A stretch of DNA of 50,268 bases from a virus, in the IMG/VR virus record IMGVR_UViG_3300009000_000007, positions 1-50,268 of that record, one strand, 5' to 3'. Shown piece after piece: positions 24,816 through 49,911 of this stretch. Made by a program: the position numbers and the translations under genes. The first letter of the stretch is position 1. Each line of letters opens with the position of its first letter. Under the pieces are notes generated by a model. It had not been told where the DNA came from. It did not search any database and saw nothing but the letters and a program-made list of their open reading frames with translations.

Positions 24816-25109
24816 ATGAGGAAGATGCCATGGGAATTCGATGAGGCTAAGTGTCGAGAAGTCGGAGTTGAAATCTTCTTCAACAAAGACGCAGACGACC
24901 CCGAAAGGGTTGGCTTCCCCTCAGACCACTACCGACAAGCGAAGAAAATCTGCAACACCTGCGTCCATCAAAATGATTGCGCACTGTGGGGAATAGAAAA
25001 CGAACTCCACGGTATGTGGGGAGGGCTGACCCCTAGGGAGCGCAGAACAATGCGTGGAAAAAGCAAAATAAACATTCCTAAGACAATCCCATACTCGCCA
25101 AACAGGTAG
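24816..25109 (+). CDS. WhiB-like transcription factor (first)
   Basis: A 97-residue WhiB-like protein with ATG 24816. C13 and a C-x-x-C...C set (C47, C50 and C56 in ICNTCVHQNDCALWG) supply the four Fe-S ligands. The G-M-W-G-G turn and the following R-E-R-R segment are the sigma-factor/DNA-binding parts. Wbl proteins bind the RNA polymerase sigma factor and are sensitive to oxygen or nitric oxide. Phage copies can redirect host transcription or block superinfection, as WhiBTM4 does in mycobacteria. The start could also be ATG 24825. A weak aggag site lies upstream. Host restriction to Actinobacteria follows from this family. Confidence 0.88.
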   Translation: MRKMPWEFDEAKCREVGVEIFFNKDADDPERVGFPSDHYRQAKKICNTCVHQNDCALWGIENELHGMWGGLTPRERRTMRGKSKINIPKTIPYSPNR

Positions 25110-25821: not shown

Positions 25822-26361
25822 GTGTGGAAACCTGCCGACAACCTGAAGTGGCAGTCGGATGCTTTGTGCTCCAAACCCCAATTTCGTGAGAACCGAGAAT
25901 GGTTCTTCTCGAAAGAAGCCAACGAGCGCACAGAAGCGAAAAACTTGTGCTACTCGTGTCCGGTACGAGCTCAATGTCTGCAGTGGGCGTTAGAGCACAG
26001 ACAGATTTGGGGCATTTGGGGTGGCAAGGATGAAGTTGAAATTCGCAGAGCTCTCTCCGTGTCTTACAAAGGAGAGGAGACTCGTAGGCGTAGATTCCCC
26101 AACTGTCCGTACTGCAGCGCTCGTCCTTCCAAGTTGGAGACTAGCACTCAGGAGCTGAGCGGTGGCGGTCGTTGGACTACCGCCAAGATTGTGTCCTGCA
26201 CTGTATGCCACTTCTCGTGGAAGAGTCGAACTAGCGTCAATGCTGTTCACGCTTACCAGCACGAACGCCAGCAGCGAGAAGAGAAGAAGCAAAAAGAGCG
26301 GGAGCGCAGGGCTCGTGTCAAGGCTCGGGAAAAAGAGCGGGCTAGGAAGTCTAAGAAGTAA
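25822..26361 (+). CDS. WhiB-like protein fused to a zinc ribbon and basic tail
   Basis: This 179-residue protein begins at GTG 25822. The first ~80 residues are a Wbl domain: C16, then C43-x-x-C46-x5-C52 and the G-I-W-G-G turn. After that come CPYC and CTVC (about residues 94-97 and 130-133), a second zinc-ribbon-like pair, and a strongly basic coiled tail rich in Arg, Lys and Glu (KQKERERRARVKAREKER). A Wbl fused to another metal site is unusual. The start lacks a clear SD and is only 10 bases past a TACTAT stretch (25807-25812), so a very short leader is possible. Its 3' end overlaps the convergent glycosyltransferase gene by 11 bases. Confidence 0.75.
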   Translation: MWKPADNLKWQSDALCSKPQFRENREWFFSKEANERTEAKNLCYSCPVRAQCLQWALEHRQIWGIWGGKDEVEIRRALSVSYKGEETRRRRFPNCPYCSARPSKLETSTQELSGGGRWTTAKIVSCTVCHFSWKSRTSVNAVHAYQHERQQREEKKQKERERRARVKAREKERARKSKK

Positions 26362-27424
26362 TATTTGCCCCGGCGGCTTTTTCACAGAAAACGAGATTGC
26401 TTCTCATTCTCTCATTGTCTGGCTCAAGCTCTACAGCGTTGCGAGCGTACTCAGCGGCTTTCTCATACTCTCCAAGGTTGTACGCAGCGATTGCGGCGTA
26501 GTCCCACGGTGCTGCACCCCATGACTCAGCCTCGCAAAGATATTCCAAAGGCTTTTCTTTAATCTCCAAGGCGCTCTCGGCTGCGTCTAGACACTGACGC
26601 CATTCCTGACGACCGTAGTAAAGCTTTGCAAGGTCTACGAACGGCTCTCTGCGGCCCGGGGCTTCGTCTACTGCTTTTCGGAACCAGTGCTCAGCTTCCG
26701 CTGGTAGGGACTTTCCAATAAAGCGCATTGAAGCAGCACGCTCTGGCTTCCAATGGGCTGTAGGAAGCTCTAGATGCCTCTTCAGCTCAGCGGCAGCTTC
26801 AATGTACTGTCCGTAGAAATACAACTCACGACCGTAGTAGAAAGCGTTCCGGTCGTTGTAGGGGTCTTCCTTGACCGAAAGCGCAAGGAGAGGTAGATAC
26901 TGCGACCTGCTCTTTGTGTTGTCGGGGTGGTGATGTGTCTCCAGCCCATCTACCCAACCCTGAACCTCCTCAATTCCGTAGGAGTAAATGCACTCATGTA
27001 CGGGGTGACGCCAGCGGAACCCCTTACGGGCGTGAATGTGGTCGTAGGAGAACTCAAGACCGGGTGTTCCGTCTTCGTTGAATGACCAGACATGCTTATA
27101 GCGGGGACGGTTGATTCCGTTGTTCCACGCTTCTTCGAGAACTTCTTTCCACCCCGGGGTAATTACTTCATCCATGTCGAGCGACACGCACATGTCGATG
27201 TCGAGAGGAAGTGCAGCGAGCGCTGCATTGCGTGCGTCGTCAAATCGCCAAGGACTGACACGCACATCGACAACATTGATGCCCAACTCACGAGCCTTTT
27301 CCACCGTCCCGTCTGTAGACCCCGTATCAGCGATTAGAAGATAGTCCGCATCTTTAGCGGATTCATACCAACGCTCAACAAACTGCAGCTCATTGAGTGC
27401 GATTGTGTAAATAGCTGTTTTCAT
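26351..27424 (-). CDS. Family 2 glycosyltransferase with TPR repeats
   Basis: This minus-strand protein is a fusion. Residues 1-230 form a GT-A domain, IADTGSTDGTVEKARELG being the nucleotide-binding loop and D-M-D (residues 84-86, CVSLDMDEVIT) the metal-binding D-x-D. A helical, TPR-like domain (WFRKAVDEAP, ALEIKEKPLEY, YEKAAEYARNAVELEPDN) follows. Proteins of this type in phages and bacteria add sugars to surface polymers or proteins. I chose the second ATG (27424) because AGGAG lies six bases from it; the first ATG at 27427 is also possible. The substrate is not evident. It ends the adsorption operon and converges with the WhiB-like gene. Confidence 0.75.
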   Translation of the reverse strand: MKTAIYTIALNELQFVERWYESAKDADYLLIADTGSTDGTVEKARELGINVVDVRVSPWRFDDARNAALAALPLDIDMCVSLDMDEVITPGWKEVLEEAWNNGINRPRYKHVWSFNEDGTPGLEFSYDHIHARKGFRWRHPVHECIYSYGIEEVQGWVDGLETHHHPDNTKSRSQYLPLLALSVKEDPYNDRNAFYYGRELYFYGQYIEAAAELKRHLELPTAHWKPERAASMRFIGKSLPAEAEHWFRKAVDEAPGRREPFVDLAKLYYGRQEWRQCLDAAESALEIKEKPLEYLCEAESWGAAPWDYAAIAAYNLGEYEKAAEYARNAVELEPDNERMRSNLVFCEKAAGANITS

Positions 27425-27438
27425 CATTGTCTCCTATG

Positions 27439-29025
27439 TCACGCTTGCCGAACCGGAGCGGCTTTTTTGAGGTCATTAATAAAATTCATATGAAGAAGAG
27501 ATAAATCAAGGTACTCGTTTTGGACTTCCATTAAAAGTTCGTAGTCTGCTTCGATTGTTTCTGGAACTTCATTGTCTTTATAAAGTTGTTTGTACGTCTT
27601 GCTATTAATTTTTGAAACTCCTTTTGAAACAGAAAGCCAGCTCTCAAGGGAGAAAATATCTCCTTCAAAATCTGTGTATCTGGGGAGTCTGTAATCCCAA
27701 GTTGAAAGAATCTTCTTTAAAGGCTTTGGCGCATTTGATTGTGATTGATAGTGCTTCCAAAAATCTGTGTCTTCTCTTCCACCCATATAGTGCAAGTACA
27801 CGAAGTTAAAAATGTTGTCATTAATCCGACAAGAATATTTATTGAACTCATCAATGCTTTTTTGATTCCGATTTTTAACCAAACCAATATCTTTCAAAGC
27901 ATGTGTTAGCTGCAAAATAGTAGCCCAAATTGATGTAGCTTCAAGAGGCTCTATAAACCCACTTGACAGACCTACAGCAAGGCAGTTCTTCACCCATGGG
28001 GTCTTGTAGTAGCCCGGAGTAAACTTAAAAGATTTTTCCCGAGGCCAGACAGGTTCCTCGCCCAAAAACTCAACAATCTCTGCTTTGGCTTCTTCGTCGG
28101 TCAGATAGTTAGAGTCGAAGACGTAACCGCAGCCATATCTATGCTGTAGAGGAATCTTCCACGACCAGCCGTACTTCATGGCTGTAGACTCGGTGTAAGG
28201 AGCTAAATTATTTAGGTCAACTGGAAGAAAATAAGGCATCGCTGAATCAACAGTGAGATAGGGAGAGTGGTCTTCCCATTCGCTTTGGTAGAGACCCCCT
28301 ATAAGTCTTTTTGCAAAGCCAGTACAGTCAATAAAAAAGTCACCTTCGATGGTCTCTCCGGATTCTAAGTGCAGGGACTCAATTTCTCCGACTGAATTAG
28401 TTGACTCGCTGACCACCTTCCCCTCTATACGGGTAATTTCTCTTTCCTCTGTAGCCACCCTCTTGAAAAAATCAGCCAAAGCGATGGCATCAAAGTGAAC
28501 TGCGTAGTTTGCGTTGTATAGATATTTAAATATCGGGTCGGGAATAATCTGATTATCGTACTCAGGGTGGGGAAGAAACGGTACTTTATTGGCCTCGCTC
28601 AATCGGTCTAGATAGTTGTAATTAGAAAATGGCTTACCTGTCGCCTCACCGTGTGCGAAAAGAACCGAGGTGTCGTACAGATACTGATGGCTGTCAAACG
28701 AAGCGAGTCCTACTTCGTCGCTTGCATTAAACCCGTGATAGTAGTAATCATCACTGCCCTGCCAATTAACAAACTTTATTCCATTTTTAATGGTCGAACT
28801 TGTTTCTTTTACAAGTCTTGACAGAGGAATCTTTACCTTATCTAGGAAATCAATAAACGGAGGAGTAGTACCTTCCCCAGCCCCGAGAACCCCAATAGAG
28901 TCTGATTCCACAAGTACAATTTCAGAAGTAGGAGATTTGTAACGCAAATACAAAGCAGAAATCCACCCTGCCGTACCTCCACCAACAACAACAAATTTAT
29001 ACGGCTTTTTCTCTGCCATCGTCAC
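27439..29025 (-). CDS. Flavin-dependent tryptophan-halogenase-like protein
   Basis: This 528-residue protein has all the marks of the family. G-G-G-T-A-G-W near residue 15 is the FAD-binding loop (G-x-G-x-x-G). W-S-W-K-I-P is the W-x-W-x-I-P motif that separates halogenases from monooxygenases. K80 (SSTIKNGIKFVNW) lies at the place of the catalytic lysine K79 of PrnA. F-I-E-P-L-E-A-T-S corresponds to the conserved E-P-L-E-S-T segment. Such enzymes use reduced flavin and halide to chlorinate or brominate tryptophan or other aromatics. Related genes occur in cyanophages. It starts at GTG 29025, overlapping the methyltransferase stop. No flavin reductase is in the window. Confidence 0.85.
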   Translation of the reverse strand: MTMAEKKPYKFVVVGGGTAGWISALYLRYKSPTSEIVLVESDSIGVLGAGEGTTPPFIDFLDKVKIPLSRLVKETSSTIKNGIKFVNWQGSDDYYYHGFNASDEVGLASFDSHQYLYDTSVLFAHGEATGKPFSNYNYLDRLSEANKVPFLPHPEYDNQIIPDPIFKYLYNANYAVHFDAIALADFFKRVATEEREITRIEGKVVSESTNSVGEIESLHLESGETIEGDFFIDCTGFAKRLIGGLYQSEWEDHSPYLTVDSAMPYFLPVDLNNLAPYTESTAMKYGWSWKIPLQHRYGCGYVFDSNYLTDEEAKAEIVEFLGEEPVWPREKSFKFTPGYYKTPWVKNCLAVGLSSGFIEPLEATSIWATILQLTHALKDIGLVKNRNQKSIDEFNKYSCRINDNIFNFVYLHYMGGREDTDFWKHYQSQSNAPKPLKKILSTWDYRLPRYTDFEGDIFSLESWLSVSKGVSKINSKTYKQLYKDNEVPETIEADYELLMEVQNEYLDLSLLHMNFINDLKKAAPVRQA

Positions 29026-29597
29026 ACCATCTTCCGAACCCAGAACTGATACCCATTAACTAAGACTTCTATTCTGTCTATGTAAATTTGGTAGAAAGCA
29101 TCAATTGCTGCTCTAGGTTCTTTAGATACTCCTAGACCGGCAGACCATTGGTAATCATCGAAAGCCAATATTCCGCCAACTTTGAGACAGTCAAAAGCAT
29201 GAAATCCGTCTTTCAAAACAGACGGAGCGGTGTGGTCTCCGTCTACATAGATAAAATCAAAGAACTGTTGATTGTTCTTGAAGAACCAGTCGCTGGTTCC
29301 CTTAAACTTGACAATTTTTCTTTCTTCACGAGCCTTCTGGGTTTTTGCATCGTAGACAGTCTCTACGGAACCCCAGTTCATCCCATGATGTACCGGCTCG
29401 TCTGAACCCTCCCAAGTGTCAACATCAATAAGAACAGAGTCGGGGTTCTTGAGAAGATTTAGGTACATCCACAGGCTTGCATCCCCTGTGTAAGCACCAA
29501 TCTGAAGAGCCCTAACTGGCGAAGAAGACAGGTCACTCAGATGAGCGTGAAAATTTGCTTGTCCATCGCTGGCGAACCAGTTTGGAAGCTGAGTCAT
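29022..29597 (-). CDS. Class I SAM-dependent methyltransferase (MT24-like)
   Basis: This 191-residue protein starts at ATG 29597 with a GAGAG site seven bases upstream; a TTG at 29609 is less likely. RALQIGAYTGDASLW is the motif I SAM-binding loop, with an acidic residue in L-I-D-V-D, and V-D-G-D-H is the strand-IV acidic motif typical of Methyltransferase_24/O-methyltransferase-like enzymes. The target could be a sugar, an amino acid or an aromatic group. It overlaps the halogenase gene and follows a fibre gene in the same direction, so it is co-expressed with both. No DNA-target-recognition domain is visible. Confidence 0.75.
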   Translation of the reverse strand: MTQLPNWFASDGQANFHAHLSDLSSSPVRALQIGAYTGDASLWMYLNLLKNPDSVLIDVDTWEGSDEPVHHGMNWGSVETVYDAKTQKAREERKIVKFKGTSDWFFKNNQQFFDFIYVDGDHTAPSVLKDGFHAFDCLKVGGILAFDDYQWSAGLGVSKEPRAAIDAFYQIYIDRIEVLVNGYQFWVRKMV

Positions 29598-29626
29598 TAT
29601 TTCTCTCAATCTGTCGTAGTGAAACC

Positions 29627-29632
29627 ACTATA
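29627..29632 (-). promoter_or_regulatory. Extended -10 element (TGT-TATAGT) before the modification cassette
   Basis: TATAGT on the minus strand with TG one base upstream fits an extended -10 and is 30 bases from the methyltransferase ATG. It overlaps a 6-bp inverted repeat (atagtg...cactac). This could let the methyltransferase, halogenase and glycosyltransferase genes be expressed separately from the fibres. Confidence 0.4.
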
Positions 29633-29653
29633 ACAGTTTGAGAGCGCTAAAAA

Positions 29654-30768
29654 CTAGATAGAACTCAGAGATTTGTGAGTAATTGTCCCCACCATTGACG
29701 CAGTGTGGATGCTGCACTGGTAACGATACCCGTTTGAAGCAGCGGTAACCGGAACATTCCAATACACAGTTCCAGAAGTCTGCTCCTGTGCGTTCACATC
29801 AACATTTACCGTTCCGTCTGTGTCGATATGAATTAGACCGCTTTCGATATTCGCAAAACCAGCGCCAGTGTCTTCCTGCAACCTAAACGGATGACTGGAA
29901 AGACCGCTTAGTTTAAAGGCAATAGTTGCTCCACCCAAAGCATAGATAGTTGGGTTGTCTCCGCTATAATGGGAATTAAACTGATAACCGTCTGTTCCGT
30001 TAGCGGTTACAACGAGCTGAGCAATTGCTGGAAGAGCCGCTTCATCATAGCCTCTGTTTGAGTTTGTCGGCTCGTCTAGACCAGTGAAGGTCGTGGTTCC
30101 TGCAGGTCCTGTTGGTCCCGTTGGCCCGCCCAATCCTTGCGGTCCAGTAGGTCCAGTTGGGCCTGTAACAGTGCTGTCTGCACCTTGAGCTCCGGTCGCA
30201 CCTGTGGGCCCCGTAGGTCCGGTAGGTCCTTCCGGCCCTGTAGGACCGTCGGATGGTCCCGTTGGACCTGTAGCTCCTGTGGGACCTGTTGGGCCACCAG
30301 ACGGACCTGTAGCTCCTGTAGCTCCTGTGGGACCTAGAATTGAGCCGATGCTGAGGAACTGAGTGGTTGTTGTATCCCAGACATACAGTTCACCATCTGC
30401 TTCGACAACGTAGGCATCACCAGCCGCACCGCTTCCGGGCAGGTCTCCCGTAGTAGCAACCTCCCCCTTGAGATTTACGGCTGTGCCGTCTTCGCCTTGC
30501 GGTCCAGTCGGGCCAGTAGGACCGTCAGAACCAGTAGGACCGGTGGGACCAGTATCACCAACTGGGCCGGTTGCTCCATCGGCTCCCGTAGGGCCAGTAG
30601 GTCCAGTGGGTCCCGTTGGTCCACCGCTGGGCCCGGTGGGTCCAGTCTCTCCGATAGGGCCAGTCGGACCAGTGACCGAAGGACCAGTAGGTCCAGTCGG
30701 TCCTTGGTCGCCAATGGCTACAGCTTCCCAATCAGCTGATGTGGTGTTATATCGCCTGACTACGCTCA

Positions 30769-30769
<1 letters not shown>
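29654..30769 (-). CDS. Collagen-like fibre with cupredoxin-like tip
   Basis: A 371-residue fibre. Residues about 20-95 and 145-225 are G-X-Y triplets, mostly G-P-T, separated by a short globular module ([12 protein letters not shown], then Y-V-V[10 protein letters not shown]) shared with two other fibres. The C-terminal ~140 residues are beta-rich and hold H293 (SSHPFRLQ), C352, H355 and M359 in [12 protein letters not shown], matching the H...C-x2-H-x3-M spacing of a type 1 copper site. I read this as a cupredoxin-fold head, probably binding copper or merely reusing the fold. The protein is not predicted to be secreted by the host. It is coupled to the upstream fibre by a TAATG overlap. Confidence 0.6.
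30099..30712 (-). repeat. G-P-T-rich collagen-like triplets in the cupredoxin fibre
   Basis: Two blocks of G-x-y triplets, chiefly G-P-T and G-A-T, are broken by the non-collagenous module at about 30350-30480. Threonine in the Y position and many G-P-T runs are typical of phage and bacterial collagen-like fibres. The DNA is repetitive (ggtcctacnggtcc), which also creates false open frames on the other strand. Confidence 0.85.
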
Positions 30770-32196
<1,427 letters not shown>

Positions 32197-32270: not shown

Positions 32271-33836
32271 CTAGGCCACTTCTGAGAAAGAGAATGGTCT
32301 TTGACCAGACATTGGCATGAAAGCGATTCTATTTGGGCCCCCATAAACGCTGTTTGTTGTAGCGTAATCATCGCTAAGGCCGGTGGTGTGGAGAATGGTC
32401 TTGGCATTGCCCTCCATCCAACCGACAACTTGAGCAGGGGTCCAATCTCTATGAGCTTGGAGAAGCAGGGCACACATTCCGGCTACCTGAGGGGTAGCCA
32501 TGGAAGTCCCAGAAAGAATCTGCTGGTAGTAACCATTGTCTAAGTAGTAAGGATTGCTGGCGGAATCTATATTGGTAATGCTGTAAGCACTAATAATTCT
32601 GTCTCCAGCAGCGTAAACGTTTACTCCGGGACCGGCGTCGCTGTAAACAGATTTTGCCTCCACGCCACCGATGAAGTTTGTACCAAATGAGCCGACCTCA
32701 AATCCAGCAGAACCATTTGCTGAAGGAGAGGCACCTCTGTGGTAGTAAAAATCTGGCAGACCTGTGGCTGTTACGTAGTTGTTGTAATCAGCCCCACCGG
32801 ACACATCGTGCTTTAGACCGCCATTGCCAGCAGCGTTGCACACAACAATTCCAGCGCTAATCATTGAGGCAATATCAGCATCTACTGAGGAGACTCTCTG
32901 ATTAAAAATATAAAGCGTTGTGTTAACTTGTTGACCGGTCAAACCTTTAGCAGTGTCTTTTGTTGTATCGCTATGCGATACACCTCGATAGGAACCCCCT
33001 GTTACCGGATAGTAGGTAACCTCGTTGTAAGTAAGTTCGTCGGTTGCTTCATCCCAGTAGATAATGTACGACCAACTATTCACAACGACCGTGGGGTTTC
33101 CATTGGTTTTATTGTTGTGCCACCCAAGGATGCAGTCGAAAGCATCTGCAGCGCTCATGCCTCCCACGGGGTCTGACGCACCCTCAAGACCAGCCAACTT
33201 AATGACATAAATGTTGGCATTTTTTGCCCAGCCGAAAGTTTTGCCTGCCACTGTTCCGGCAACGTGGGTCCCATGACCGTCGTAGTCAACGTAGAACCCC
33301 GATGGCATTGACCCAGAAACTCCGCTGGAGGTATACCAATCAATTTGCTGAACCCTGCTGTTACCTTCAGCATCTTCGAACTCAGGGTGGTCAGCTTGAA
33401 TTCCGCTGTCAACAATTACGACATCTACTCCTGTGCCGTCTAGAACATAATCATAAGTTCCACCGGGGTCAGACGTAGAAGTCCCAAAAACATTTGTTGC
33501 ATTGATGTGGCGCAGCAGTCCCCAGTTCTGCTTTTCTCCGGTCTGGGTGGTCAACTTGTTGAAGTTCCCGTCTAGAAACGCACGCTTTCGAACGGGGATT
33601 TCGGAGACATCCTCTACAGCCTCTACACGAGGGTCTTGACGAAGAGCCTCGGCTTCAGCATCAGTAAGAAAGTAAGAAGTGTTGCGGGGATTGTTTGTAC
33701 GCTCGTTAGCTACTTCTACCGACCTGTCGGGGATTGTGTCGGGAGTTGGCGCATCAGTGAGCAGGTCGTCCCAGATGGAATCTGTGGTATTCATGTCTGG
33801 TGCGGTAACTGTATACTCCCGCAACTCGTCAGACAT
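32271..33836 (-). CDS. Subtilisin-like serine protease of the adsorption operon
   Basis: A 521-residue S8 protease with an intact triad: D143 (VVIVDSGIQADH), H188 (DGHGTHVAG) and S445 (SGTSMATPQ), plus the oxyanion N in N-A-A-G-N-G. Residues about 50-80 (SYFLTDAEAEALRQDPRVEAVE) resemble an I9 inhibitor propeptide. There is no signal peptide or transmembrane segment, so it is likely a virion or assembly protein rather than a secreted enzyme. It is coupled by one-base overlap to the upstream fibre. It could process a fibre during assembly or cut host surface proteins to open a path to the membrane. The presence of an intact triad and propeptide suggests an active enzyme. Confidence 0.88.
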   Translation of the reverse strand: MSDELREYTVTAPDMNTTDSIWDDLLTDAPTPDTIPDRSVEVANERTNNPRNTSYFLTDAEAEALRQDPRVEAVEDVSEIPVRKRAFLDGNFNKLTTQTGEKQNWGLLRHINATNVFGTSTSDPGGTYDYVLDGTGVDVVIVDSGIQADHPEFEDAEGNSRVQQIDWYTSSGVSGSMPSGFYVDYDGHGTHVAGTVAGKTFGWAKNANIYVIKLAGLEGASDPVGGMSAADAFDCILGWHNNKTNGNPTVVVNSWSYIIYWDEATDELTYNEVTYYPVTGGSYRGVSHSDTTKDTAKGLTGQQVNTTLYIFNQRVSSVDADIASMISAGIVVCNAAGNGGLKHDVSGGADYNNYVTATGLPDFYYHRGASPSANGSAGFEVGSFGTNFIGGVEAKSVYSDAGPGVNVYAAGDRIISAYSITNIDSASNPYYLDNGYYQQILSGTSMATPQVAGMCALLLQAHRDWTPAQVVGWMEGNAKTILHTTGLSDDYATTNSVYGGPNRIAFMPMSGQRPFSFSEVA

Positions 33837-34924
33837 TACTGGACCACCGCTCGGTCGGTCACCCTCCGCCAGTCAGTACCGTCATAAAAAGCAAGAACTG
33901 GTCCGCCAGTTTCATCTGTGCAGTAGACGATAGAACCCGCACTTGATACCAAGGTTGACAGCTCAAGGACTGTTTTACTGACCAATTTCATCGGAGCATC
34001 GTTGATGATTTCATCAACTGGGTCCAGAGTGATTGTGGTTGGTGAAGTGAGACTGTATGTACCAGTCAGAGATGACGGAGCGTTGATTGATTCAGTCTCG
34101 ACTGCAGTTACAGCGAGGACTTCTGTGCTGGCATTAAAAGTTATGCCAGAGTTTGTCTTACCACCAATGGTTCCAGTGGCGTCCTCGTAGAGGCCAACAA
34201 AAGTTGTTGCGTCTGTTGTATTAGCAACATCAATTGCACCACCGCCCGGGCCTGTAGGTCCTGTAGCTCCGGTTGGTCCAGTCGGTCCTCCAGAGGGACC
34301 AGTAGGACCTGTGGGGCCAGTAGCTCCGGTTACTGAGGGACCAGTTGGTCCTTCATCCCCCGCAGGTCCGGTAGGACCGGTAGGTCCAGTTGCTCCATCG
34401 CCTGTCCCTGTTCCAACCAGCTCCCACTCTTCCCCGGTGAGAACCTCAAGAGCGCTGTACTCTGTGTTAAATCGAACATAGCCGACCTCAGCGTCTGGCC
34501 TACGGTCAGCAGTTTCACCAACATCTAGATAGAGAGTGTTATCTACGCCTCTAATGACTTTATTTCTAAAGGTAAGCGATAAGTCTCCCTGACCGATTGC
34601 ATCATCTTGAAGAAGACCATAAGCACTGAAAGATACGTTGGCTTGAGTTGTTCTAACAAAGAGTCCATCGCCCGGGTTTACAGCAAATCTAAATGTCTCA
34701 AAACTTTGCCCAAACCCAAGGTCCAAGTTGTTTGCTAGATATACGTAAGAACCTTCAGTCGAAGCTCCCGAAGGAACGATGTAGATAGCTATTCTAGGAA
34801 TAGGAGTTGCCGAAGGCGAGATATTCGTGACAACCACAGACACCAAATAGCTGTCCGTGAATGTGACCATGCCTGTATCGACATTTGATTCTGGCCTTGC
34901 CGCAGCAAGTCTTTGAATAGCCAT
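33836..34924 (-). CDS. Collagen-like fibre
   Basis: A 362-residue fibre that starts 13 bases after the giant fibre stop, with a strong GGGAGAG site. The N-terminus ([15 protein letters not shown], then [19 protein letters not shown]) is a paralogue of the jelly-roll fibre N-terminus, so the two probably use the same docking site. Then comes a beta-hairpin module ([12 protein letters not shown]...GEEWELVG), a short G-P-T collagen block at about residues 175-230 (plus 34240-34400), a beta-rich segment and a final [20 protein letters not shown]. No enzymatic motif is seen. Confidence 0.65.
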
Positions 34925-46236: not shown

Positions 46237-46887
46237 TTATACGCCTAGCCACCACGCTGTTGATACGGCGTATGTACTCTGAAGACCTCTTGGACCAGTC
46301 GGTCCAGTCTGTCCACCCTGAGTGCGAACGAAAACTCCGTTGTAATAGACATAAGTAATAGCAGTACTTGTGTCAAACCAAGTGTCACCGTCTGTTGCCA
46401 GACCAATATCAGGCTGCTGGGGACTGGCAATAAACTTACCGACAGGACCAGTAGGTCCAGTAGGACCGGGAACTTCAGACTGAGGACCAGTCGAACCGGT
46501 AGGACCAGTTTGCCCACGAGGCCCAGTGGGACCTTGAGGACCAGTTACGTTTGAATCAGCACCTGTGGGACCTGTTACACCTTGAGGACCAATGTCACCT
46601 TGATTACCTTGAGGTCCAGTGGGTCCTTGAACACCAGTTGGACCTGTGGGTCCCTGCGGACCAGCAACGTCAGAAACGGGTCCTGTAGCACCTTGAATAC
46701 CTTGAGGACCTGTGTCACCCTTAGCACCAGTTGCACCTGTTGGTCCTTGAATACCTTGTGGACCCTGAGGACCAGTGGGAGCAGTGCGCTTTAGCTCCCA
46801 AACAGTGCCTGTCCACACCCAAGTGCTGTTTCCAGCGGTGAACTCTTCACCTACAACTGTGGGGGTTGGGAAATCAATTGCTGCCAC
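46237..46887 (-). CDS. Collagen-like fibre (short)
   Basis: A 216-residue fibre that starts at GTG with a strong AAAGGAGGAG. The N-terminus ([18 protein letters not shown], then [12 protein letters not shown]) is paralogous to that of the 627-residue fibre. The middle (about residues 37-150) is a G-P-Q/G-P-T-rich collagen block, and a [16 protein letters not shown] beta module follows. The C-terminus ([18 protein letters not shown]) is short and lacks a head domain, so it may be a truncated or accessory fibre. A TACAAT -10-like hexamer lies 32 bases upstream. Confidence 0.6.
46435..46775 (-). repeat. Collagen-like triplets in the short fibre
   Basis: About 110 residues of G-x-y, with [12 protein letters not shown] and G-D-T triplets. 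Q and D in the Y position are more frequent than in the other fibres. Confidence 0.85.

Positions 46888-48027: not shown

Positions 48028-49911
<1,884 letters not shown>

What the first reader, a model, noticed from the sequence alone, without database searches (positions are those of the whole stretch)
26351..29597. Halogenase, methyltransferase and GT2-TPR cassette at the end of the fibre operon
Seen: three tightly packed minus-strand genes encode a class I methyltransferase, a flavin-dependent tryptophan-halogenase-like enzyme with the W-x-W-x-I-P motif and a lysine at the PrnA K79 position, and a GT2 domain with D-M-D fused to TPR-like helices. They follow the fibre genes, and an extended -10 lies before them. 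Known: halogenase homologues occur in cyanophages without a settled role. Inference: the trio may decorate a small molecule, phage protein or host surface polymer, for example tryptophan/tyrosine residues of the fibres. The triple combination in an actinophage-like genome is, to my knowledge, not a described system.
Basis: partly seen in the sequence, partly recalled or inferred. Interest (0 to 1): 0.75.

Follow-up and report, generated by a model that had tools for sequence, protein, structure and literature searches.

The report
Phage fibre-decorating enzyme cassette with halogenase
At the end of the tail-fibre genes of an uncultured actinophage sit a glycosyltransferase, a methyltransferase and a halogenase; comparison with bacteria shows the glycosyltransferase family belongs with collagen-like proteins, so the set most likely decorates the phage's own collagen-like fibres, with the halogenase as an optional, repeatedly recruited add-on.

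Summary
Three tightly packed minus-strand genes (MT 29022-29609, halogenase HAL 27439-29025, GT2-TPR 26351-27427) follow a collagen-like fibre operon and face a convergent whiB.

The GT2-TPR is the anchor. Its predicted fold best matches the peptide glycosyltransferases SunS and ThuS. It is encoded near collagen-like genes in phages and in unrelated bacteria. In a Bacillota sample all 12 genomes with it carry collagen-like genes, against 74 of 380 without it. It has the length, domain order and gene neighbour of C. difficile SgtA, which puts GlcNAc on Thr of GPT collagen repeats. The window's fibres are GPT-rich.

MT often accompanies GT2. HAL is optional: of 48 distinct GT2 loci found by GT2 alone, 30 have MT and 17 have HAL, always with MT. 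Fibre-end HALs are not one clade (AU p = 3e-7), so halogenases were recruited here at least twice. HAL keeps the FAD motif, W-x-W-x-I-P and the PrnA K79/E346 equivalents; the alignment with PrnA stops before its Trp-binding segment.

Best reading: a virion-fibre glycosylation cassette with a halogenating module. Fibre glycosylation is well supported by analogy. Fibre halogenation is plausible but not shown. Activity and substrates are untested.

The parts
26351..27427 (-). GT2-TPR glycosyltransferase, 358 aa, predicted SgtA-like peptide O-glycosyltransferase for collagen-like fibres
   Evidence: Pfam PF00535 + TPR; phrog_13126 E 9e-119; AF2 pLDDT 94.7; Foldseek top hits SunS/ThuS; collagen-gene adjacency in phages and bacteria
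27439..29025 (-). Flavin-dependent halogenase (PF04820), 528 aa
   Evidence: PF04820 E 9e-105; K80/E362 align with PrnA K79/E346; AF2 pLDDT 87, Foldseek BrvH, L11, LooH, PrnA, RebH
29022..29609 (-). Class I SAM methyltransferase (Methyltransf_24), 195 aa from TTG, or 191 aa from ATG 29597
   Evidence: PF13578 E 1e-13; often next to the same GT2 in relatives
29654..30769 (-). Collagen-like fibre protein rich in GPT triplets; likely substrate
   Evidence: PF01391; Thr fraction of Y positions 0.62 in the near-identical L005 copy
30769..32196 (-). Collagen-like fibre protein rich in GPT triplets; likely substrate
   Evidence: PF01391; tail-fibre PHROGs; Thr fraction of Y 0.53 in the L005 copy
32271..33836 (-). 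Subtilase-family (S8) protein in the fibre operon; Asp, His and Ser motifs present
   Evidence: PF00082 E 1e-26; sequence printed
33836..34924 (-). Fibre protein with a short GPT collagen-like segment
   Evidence: tail fibre PHROGs; Pfam collagen only weak, E 0.11
46237..46887 (-). Collagen-like fibre protein
   Evidence: PF01391 E 4e-13
48028..49911 (-). Large collagen-like tail fibre protein
   Evidence: phrog_819, phrog_5073
25822..26361 (+). WhiB-like regulator, convergent with and overlapping the 3' end of the GT2 gene; constant landmark of the locus
   Evidence: PF02467 E 6e-17; synteny
29627..29635 (-). Extended -10-like string TGTTATAGT; function not supported
   Evidence: sequence; promoter scan at chance level

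Best explanation
The cassette is a late, phage-encoded modification island for the phage's own collagen-like tail fibres. Step 1, best supported: the GT2-TPR enzyme binds the Gly-Pro-Thr repeats of the fibre through its TPR domain and O-glycosylates threonines with its GT-A domain, as SgtA does on BclA3 in C. difficile. Step 2, inferred: the methyltransferase acts on the same product, capping the sugar or methylating the fibre. Step 3, inferred and least certain: the flavin-dependent halogenase, using reduced flavin supplied by the host, installs Cl, Br or I on an aromatic residue of a fibre or tail-tip protein, or on an aromatic cap of the glycan. A glycan/halogen coat of this kind would alter fibre stability, adsorption or recognition. 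The halogenase is an exchangeable module of this island.
For: (a) GT2 structure: predicted model pLDDT 94.7. Its best solved matches over most of the chain are the peptide S-glycosyltransferases SunS and ThuS, E 1e-15 to 2e-13; the next hit is 9e-8. By profile the GT-A domain matches GmaR (3e-8), SunS and ThuS. (b) Gene company in phages: 43 of 53 distinct GT2 loci with at least 5 kb upstream have a collagen-like gene there. Thr fills 57% of Y positions (1431 of 2516). (c) Gene company in bacteria: 7 of 12 loci have a collagen-like gene within about 3.3 kb, in most of them the adjacent gene. In 4 of these genomes, including Dongia mobilis (4.2 Mb), it is the only clear collagen-like gene found. 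(d) Survey of 392 Bacillota genomes: 12 have the GT2-TPR and all 12 have PF01391, against 74 of 380 others; Fisher p 3e-8 without the seed genome. (e) Precedent: SgtA, 358 aa, GT-A then TPRs, gene immediately upstream of bclA3, adds beta-O-GlcNAc to Thr of GPT collagen peptides in vitro (PMC7157674). (f) MT often sits with GT2 in tight operons. A distant relative has a TPR-Methyltransf_24 fusion next to GT2 (L088). (g) HAL lineages were recruited to this locus at least twice, which argues for a functional tie rather than hitch-hiking. HAL keeps the residues for hypohalous acid chemistry.
Against: No biochemical data. SgtA's own sequence was not compared, so the SgtA link rests on architecture, length and context. 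Some bacterial GT2-TPR loci have no collagen gene nearby (L181, L183; L173 and L176 are on short contigs). Some phage GT2 loci (L160, L163, L165, L167, L171) show no collagen repeat in the stretch held. Thr is the commonest Y residue in bacterial collagens anyway (48% in Gram-positives, PMC8968730), so the Thr content alone is weak evidence. Most viral HALs found occur in loci without GT2 and without a collagen gene, so HAL has other uses and its tie to fibres is by location only. In DSL-LC01 the HAL has lost the second W of W-x-W-x-I-P, so not every fibre HAL need be a halogenase.
Confidence: 0.62

Rival explanations
1. Split function: GT2 and MT decorate the fibres, but HAL acts on something else, such as a free indole or phenol, a host signal or a lipid, and merely uses the late operon as an insertion site.
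For: HAL is absent from more than half of the loci. Most viral HALs found lie elsewhere, without GT2. They often lie beside a small membrane-like protein, and in L197 beside a sulfotransferase, an APS kinase and an Asp/Arg hydroxylase.
Against: HAL was recruited at least twice to the same fibre-end locus. Within loci found by GT2 alone, HAL always came with MT (17 of 17). The PrnA alignment stops before the free-tryptophan binding segment.
Confidence: 0.4
2. Host-surface remodelling: the enzymes modify a host cell-wall or surface glycan during infection to block superinfection or change host recognition.
For: PHROGs files the GT2 family under moron/AMG as beta-1,4-glycosyltransferase. DSL-LC01 also carries a UDP-galactopyranose mutase and another glycosyltransferase.
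Against: The GT2 model shows a compact GT-A plus TPR protein that resembles peptide glycosyltransferases, and the family follows collagen genes in bacteria outside any phage fibre operon.
Confidence: 0.15
3. Small-molecule tailoring: the trio makes a halogenated, methylated, glycosylated metabolite.
For: Halogenase, methyltransferase and glycosyltransferase are the classic tailoring set of secondary metabolism (established knowledge).
Against: No scaffold-making gene was identified in the cassette or in the proteins annotated around it. The GT is a peptide-type GT2-TPR, not a GT1. MT-GT2 pairs exist without HAL in 25 of 65 flanked loci.
Confidence: 0.08

Closest known systems
SgtA / BclA3 of Clostridioides difficile (O-GlcNAc on Thr of GPT collagen repeats; PMC7157674)
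   Same: 358 aa in both, N-terminal GT-A domain and C-terminal TPRs, gene beside a GPT-rich collagen-like surface protein
   Different: In a phage tail-fibre operon instead of a spore-coat locus; accompanied by MT and a halogenase; donor sugar unknown; sequence homology to SgtA not tested here
SunS / ThuS peptide S-glycosyltransferases (PDB 7msn, 7msk) and GmaR
   Same: Best fold matches of the GT2 model; GT2-type catalytic domain joined to a helical domain; protein or peptide acceptors
   Different: Low sequence identity (15-17%); acceptors are bacteriocin Cys (SunS, ThuS) or flagellin (GmaR)
Flavin-dependent halogenases BrvH, Pseudoalteromonas L11 halogenase, LooH, PrnA, RebH (PF04820)
   Same: Fold over the whole chain (TM 0.77-0.84), FAD motif, W-x-W-x-I-P, catalytic Lys and Glu
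   Different: 26-29% identity; alignment to PrnA stops before its Trp-binding segment; S347 of PrnA is Ala here; native substrate unknown
VirX1 of cyanophage Syn10 and other cyanophage halogenases
   Same: Phage-encoded PF04820 halogenase
   Different: VirX1 is a more distant match (E 2e-45) and the syn9 homologues fall in a different part of the tree. In the cyanophage and pelagiphage records viewed the halogenase is not beside an annotated glycosyltransferase or collagen-like gene
Actinomycetia phage DSL-LC01 (OQ999401; PMC10611076)
   Same: Collagen fibres, then HAL, then GT2, then convergent WhiB
   Different: No MT between them, a YHYH-domain gene instead; HAL only 31% identical with a broken W-x-W; authors reported the halogenase only as an AMG

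Membership tests
Flavin-dependent halogenase (PF04820) | Family profile match over the whole protein | tested here: met
   E 9e-105, residues 10-481
Flavin-dependent halogenase (PF04820) | FAD motif GxGxxG and W-x-W-x-I-P | tested here: met
   GGGTAG at 15-20; GWSWKIP at 286-292
Flavin-dependent halogenase (PF04820) | Catalytic Lys79 and Glu346 (PrnA numbering) | tested here: met
   K80 and E362 align; K80 and E362 conserved among fibre HALs
Flavin-dependent halogenase (PF04820) | Halogenating activity with reduced flavin | not testable with these tools
   needs assay
Free-tryptophan halogenase (PrnA/RebH subgroup) | Trp-binding segment (PrnA 443-455, position from own knowledge) | tested here: inconclusive
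   Sequence alignment stops at PrnA 434, before the segment; not checked structurally
SgtA-like collagen O-glycosyltransferase | GT-A GT2 domain then C-terminal TPRs, about 358 aa | tested here: met
   compared with PMC7157674
SgtA-like collagen O-glycosyltransferase | Encoded beside a GPT-rich collagen-like protein | tested here: met
   window and relatives; bacteria
SgtA-like collagen O-glycosyltransferase | Sequence homology to SgtA itself | not tested
SgtA-like collagen O-glycosyltransferase | Transfers sugar to Thr of GPT peptides | not testable with these tools
   needs assay
Class I SAM methyltransferase, Methyltransf_24 | Family profile and SAM-binding motif I | tested here: met
   PF13578 E 1e-13; LQIGAYTGDAS nearly invariant

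The most novel reading that the evidence does not exclude
Phages of aquatic Actinobacteria carry virion fibres that are enzymatically halogenated as well as glycosylated and methylated: a flavin-dependent halogenase acts on a structural protein, or its glycan, inside a dedicated fibre-modification island, and this has been invented more than once.
Probability: 0.33. Interest if true: 0.88.

Novelty: new variant of a known kind. Interest (0 to 1): 0.62.

Why it matters
The roles of phage-encoded halogenases are an open question, and the characterised viral one (VirX1) has been tested on non-native compounds. Placing a class of them in a fibre-glycosylation island gives a testable substrate. It also proposes a specific acceptor, the GPT threonines of collagen-like fibres, for a widespread phage glycosyltransferase family now filed only as a beta-1,4-glycosyltransferase moron. 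If right, phage collagen fibres are post-translationally modified like spore BclA, which would affect adsorption, stability and recombinant fibre work.

Tried and rejected
HAL linked to the S8 subtilase gene: 16 of 18 HAL loci have it against 4 of 24 others (p 5e-6), but only 3 independent pairs exist on the GT2 tree, so no claim is made. One origin of all fibre HALs: rejected; a first AU test on 90 rows did not finish. Bacterial donor of HAL among Actinobacteria: no match in 296 genomes, but with no positive control. A separate promoter for the cassette: matches at chance level. COL1 C-terminal domain as a cupredoxin: Pfam Copper-bind only E 0.046 and no convincing PDB match. PF04820 in the bacterial GT2 genomes: weak or fragmentary hits in most, none beside the GT2. 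Literature on halogenated phage virions or on this triple: none found in the searches made; the library lacks most subscription journals.
Full report
What is there. The three ORFs are confirmed at the given place. Reading along the minus strand, collagen-like and other fibre genes (49911 down to 29654) are followed by MT (29609-29022), HAL (29025-27439, 4-base overlap) and GT2-TPR (27427-26351). The last overlaps the end of a convergent whiB (25822-26361). The plus-strand half holds a major tail protein, a tape measure protein, minor tail proteins, a DNA polymerase and a helicase. The record is a 50,268-base IMG/VR virus contig. MT, HAL and GT2 match PF13578, PF04820 and PF00535+TPR. All three are under purifying selection where dS can be estimated.

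The halogenase. It matches PF04820 along its length. The closest solved relatives by sequence are a Pseudoalteromonas halogenase (9luq), BrvH (6frl) and LooH, then Xcc4156 and PrnA. The AlphaFold2 model (pLDDT 87) superposes on BrvH, LooH, PrnA and RebH (TM 0.77-0.84). K80 and E362 align with PrnA K79 and E346, and the W-x-W-x-I-P motif is intact. The sequence alignment with PrnA stops before its tryptophan-binding segment, so a free-tryptophan substrate is not indicated; this was not checked structurally. A halogenase fold with the catalytic residues is thus shown; activity and substrate are not.

The glycosyltransferase. This gene is the key to the locus. The model (pLDDT 94.7) has a GT-A domain followed by a TPR-type helical domain. 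The best solved matches over the chain are SunS and ThuS, peptide S-glycosyltransferases. A profile search of the PDB gives GmaR, SunS and ThuS for the GT-A domain. In IMG/VR, 43 of 53 distinct loci with 5 kb of upstream sequence carry a collagen-like gene upstream, with Thr in 57% of the Y positions. In bacteria, 7 of 12 loci found have a collagen-like gene within about 3.3 kb, and whole-genome searches show that in four of these genomes it is the only clear collagen-like gene found. In an even draw of 392 Bacillota genomes, 12 have the enzyme and all 12 have a collagen-like protein, against 74 of the other 380 (Fisher p 3e-8 without the seed genome). In at least six of the 12 the two genes lie within about 2 kb. 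The association holds outside phages, so the collagen-like protein is the natural candidate acceptor. A biochemical precedent exists: C. difficile SgtA, also 358 aa with GT-A then TPR domains and encoded immediately upstream of bclA3, adds beta-O-GlcNAc to threonines of the GPT repeats (PMC7157674).

How the cassette varies. Among 65 distinct GT2 loci with flanks, 46 have MT and 22 have HAL; the order is MT-GT2 (19), MT-GT2-HAL (15), MT-HAL-GT2 (6) or GT2-MT (6). Counting only loci found with GT2 as bait, 30 of 48 have MT and 17 have HAL, always with MT. These counts come from the best 80 matches and lean to close relatives. Contigs of 61-118 kb with an MT-GT2 locus but no HAL there have no HAL elsewhere in the contig. 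A tree of 90 viral HALs places the fibre-end HALs in two places, the window type and the type downstream of GT2; a single clade is rejected (p 3e-7). So the halogenase is a module that has been added to the same island at least twice. In phage DSL-LC01 the island is HAL-GT2 without MT, and its HAL has lost one Trp of the motif.

Mechanism proposed. Shown: gene content, conserved catalytic residues, folds (predicted), association of GT2 with collagen-like genes, repeated recruitment of HAL. Inferred with good support: Thr-O-glycosylation of the GPT fibres. Inferred with moderate support: MT acts on the same glycan or fibre. Inferred with weak support: HAL halogenates an aromatic group of a fibre protein or its glycan. 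Rival placements of HAL (a small molecule or another target) remain open, because most viral HALs lie in other contexts, often beside a small membrane-like protein (61 of 80 loci of that protein have a HAL).

Comparison with the known. By works-like, the GT2 resembles SgtA; by membership, architecture and context are met, but homology to SgtA itself and activity are untested. HAL is a member of PF04820; membership in the tryptophan-halogenase subgroup is not supported. The whole is a new variant of a known kind: collagen-type surface-protein glycosylation, here in a phage fibre operon and joined by a halogenase.

Limits. All structures are predictions, the loci are mostly metagenomic fragments, and the neighbourhood samples were drawn by similarity.

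Noticed in passing
L188:9548-9835 (+), L197:9533-9814 (+), L203:8606-8893 (+) and many more; not in the window: A conserved 94-116 aa small protein that looks like a membrane protein (YWN.PNTVEF.AF ... IIPGLLF ... WWLYIFAL ... PT[IL]IWFNI.W), with no Pfam or PHROG match, encoded next to halogenases: 61 of 80 of its IMG/VR loci have a HAL within 4 kb. A new halogenase-associated family.
   Followed up: partly
L197:5828-9814: A phage gene run of sulfotransferase, Asp/Arg beta-hydroxylase, APS kinase, halogenase and the small membrane-like protein, which looks like another macromolecule-modification island.
   Followed up: no
L118:8906-9649, L065:9077-9787, L145:11320-12024 (-): DUF6065-like proteins (phrog_7084) recur in the same fibre-end locus and near halogenases (42 of 69 hits within 3 kb of a HAL); unknown function.
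   Followed up: partly
window 32271-33836 (-): Subtilase-family protein with Asp, His and Ser motifs inside the fibre operon; co-occurs with HAL, but the link is not established after tree control.
   Followed up: partly
window 29654-30769 (-), C-terminal part: The collagen-like fibre ends in a plastocyanin-like string (SSHPF ... [12 protein letters not shown]) with possible His, Cys, His, Met copper ligands; Pfam Copper-bind only E 0.046.
   Followed up: partly
window 24816-25109 (+): A second WhiB-like gene in the window (PF02467 E 2e-14).
   Followed up: no
L088:6663-7973 (+): A TPR-Methyltransf_24 fusion beside the GT2-TPR in a distant relative, suggesting that the methyltransferase and glycosyltransferase share a peptide target.
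   Followed up: no
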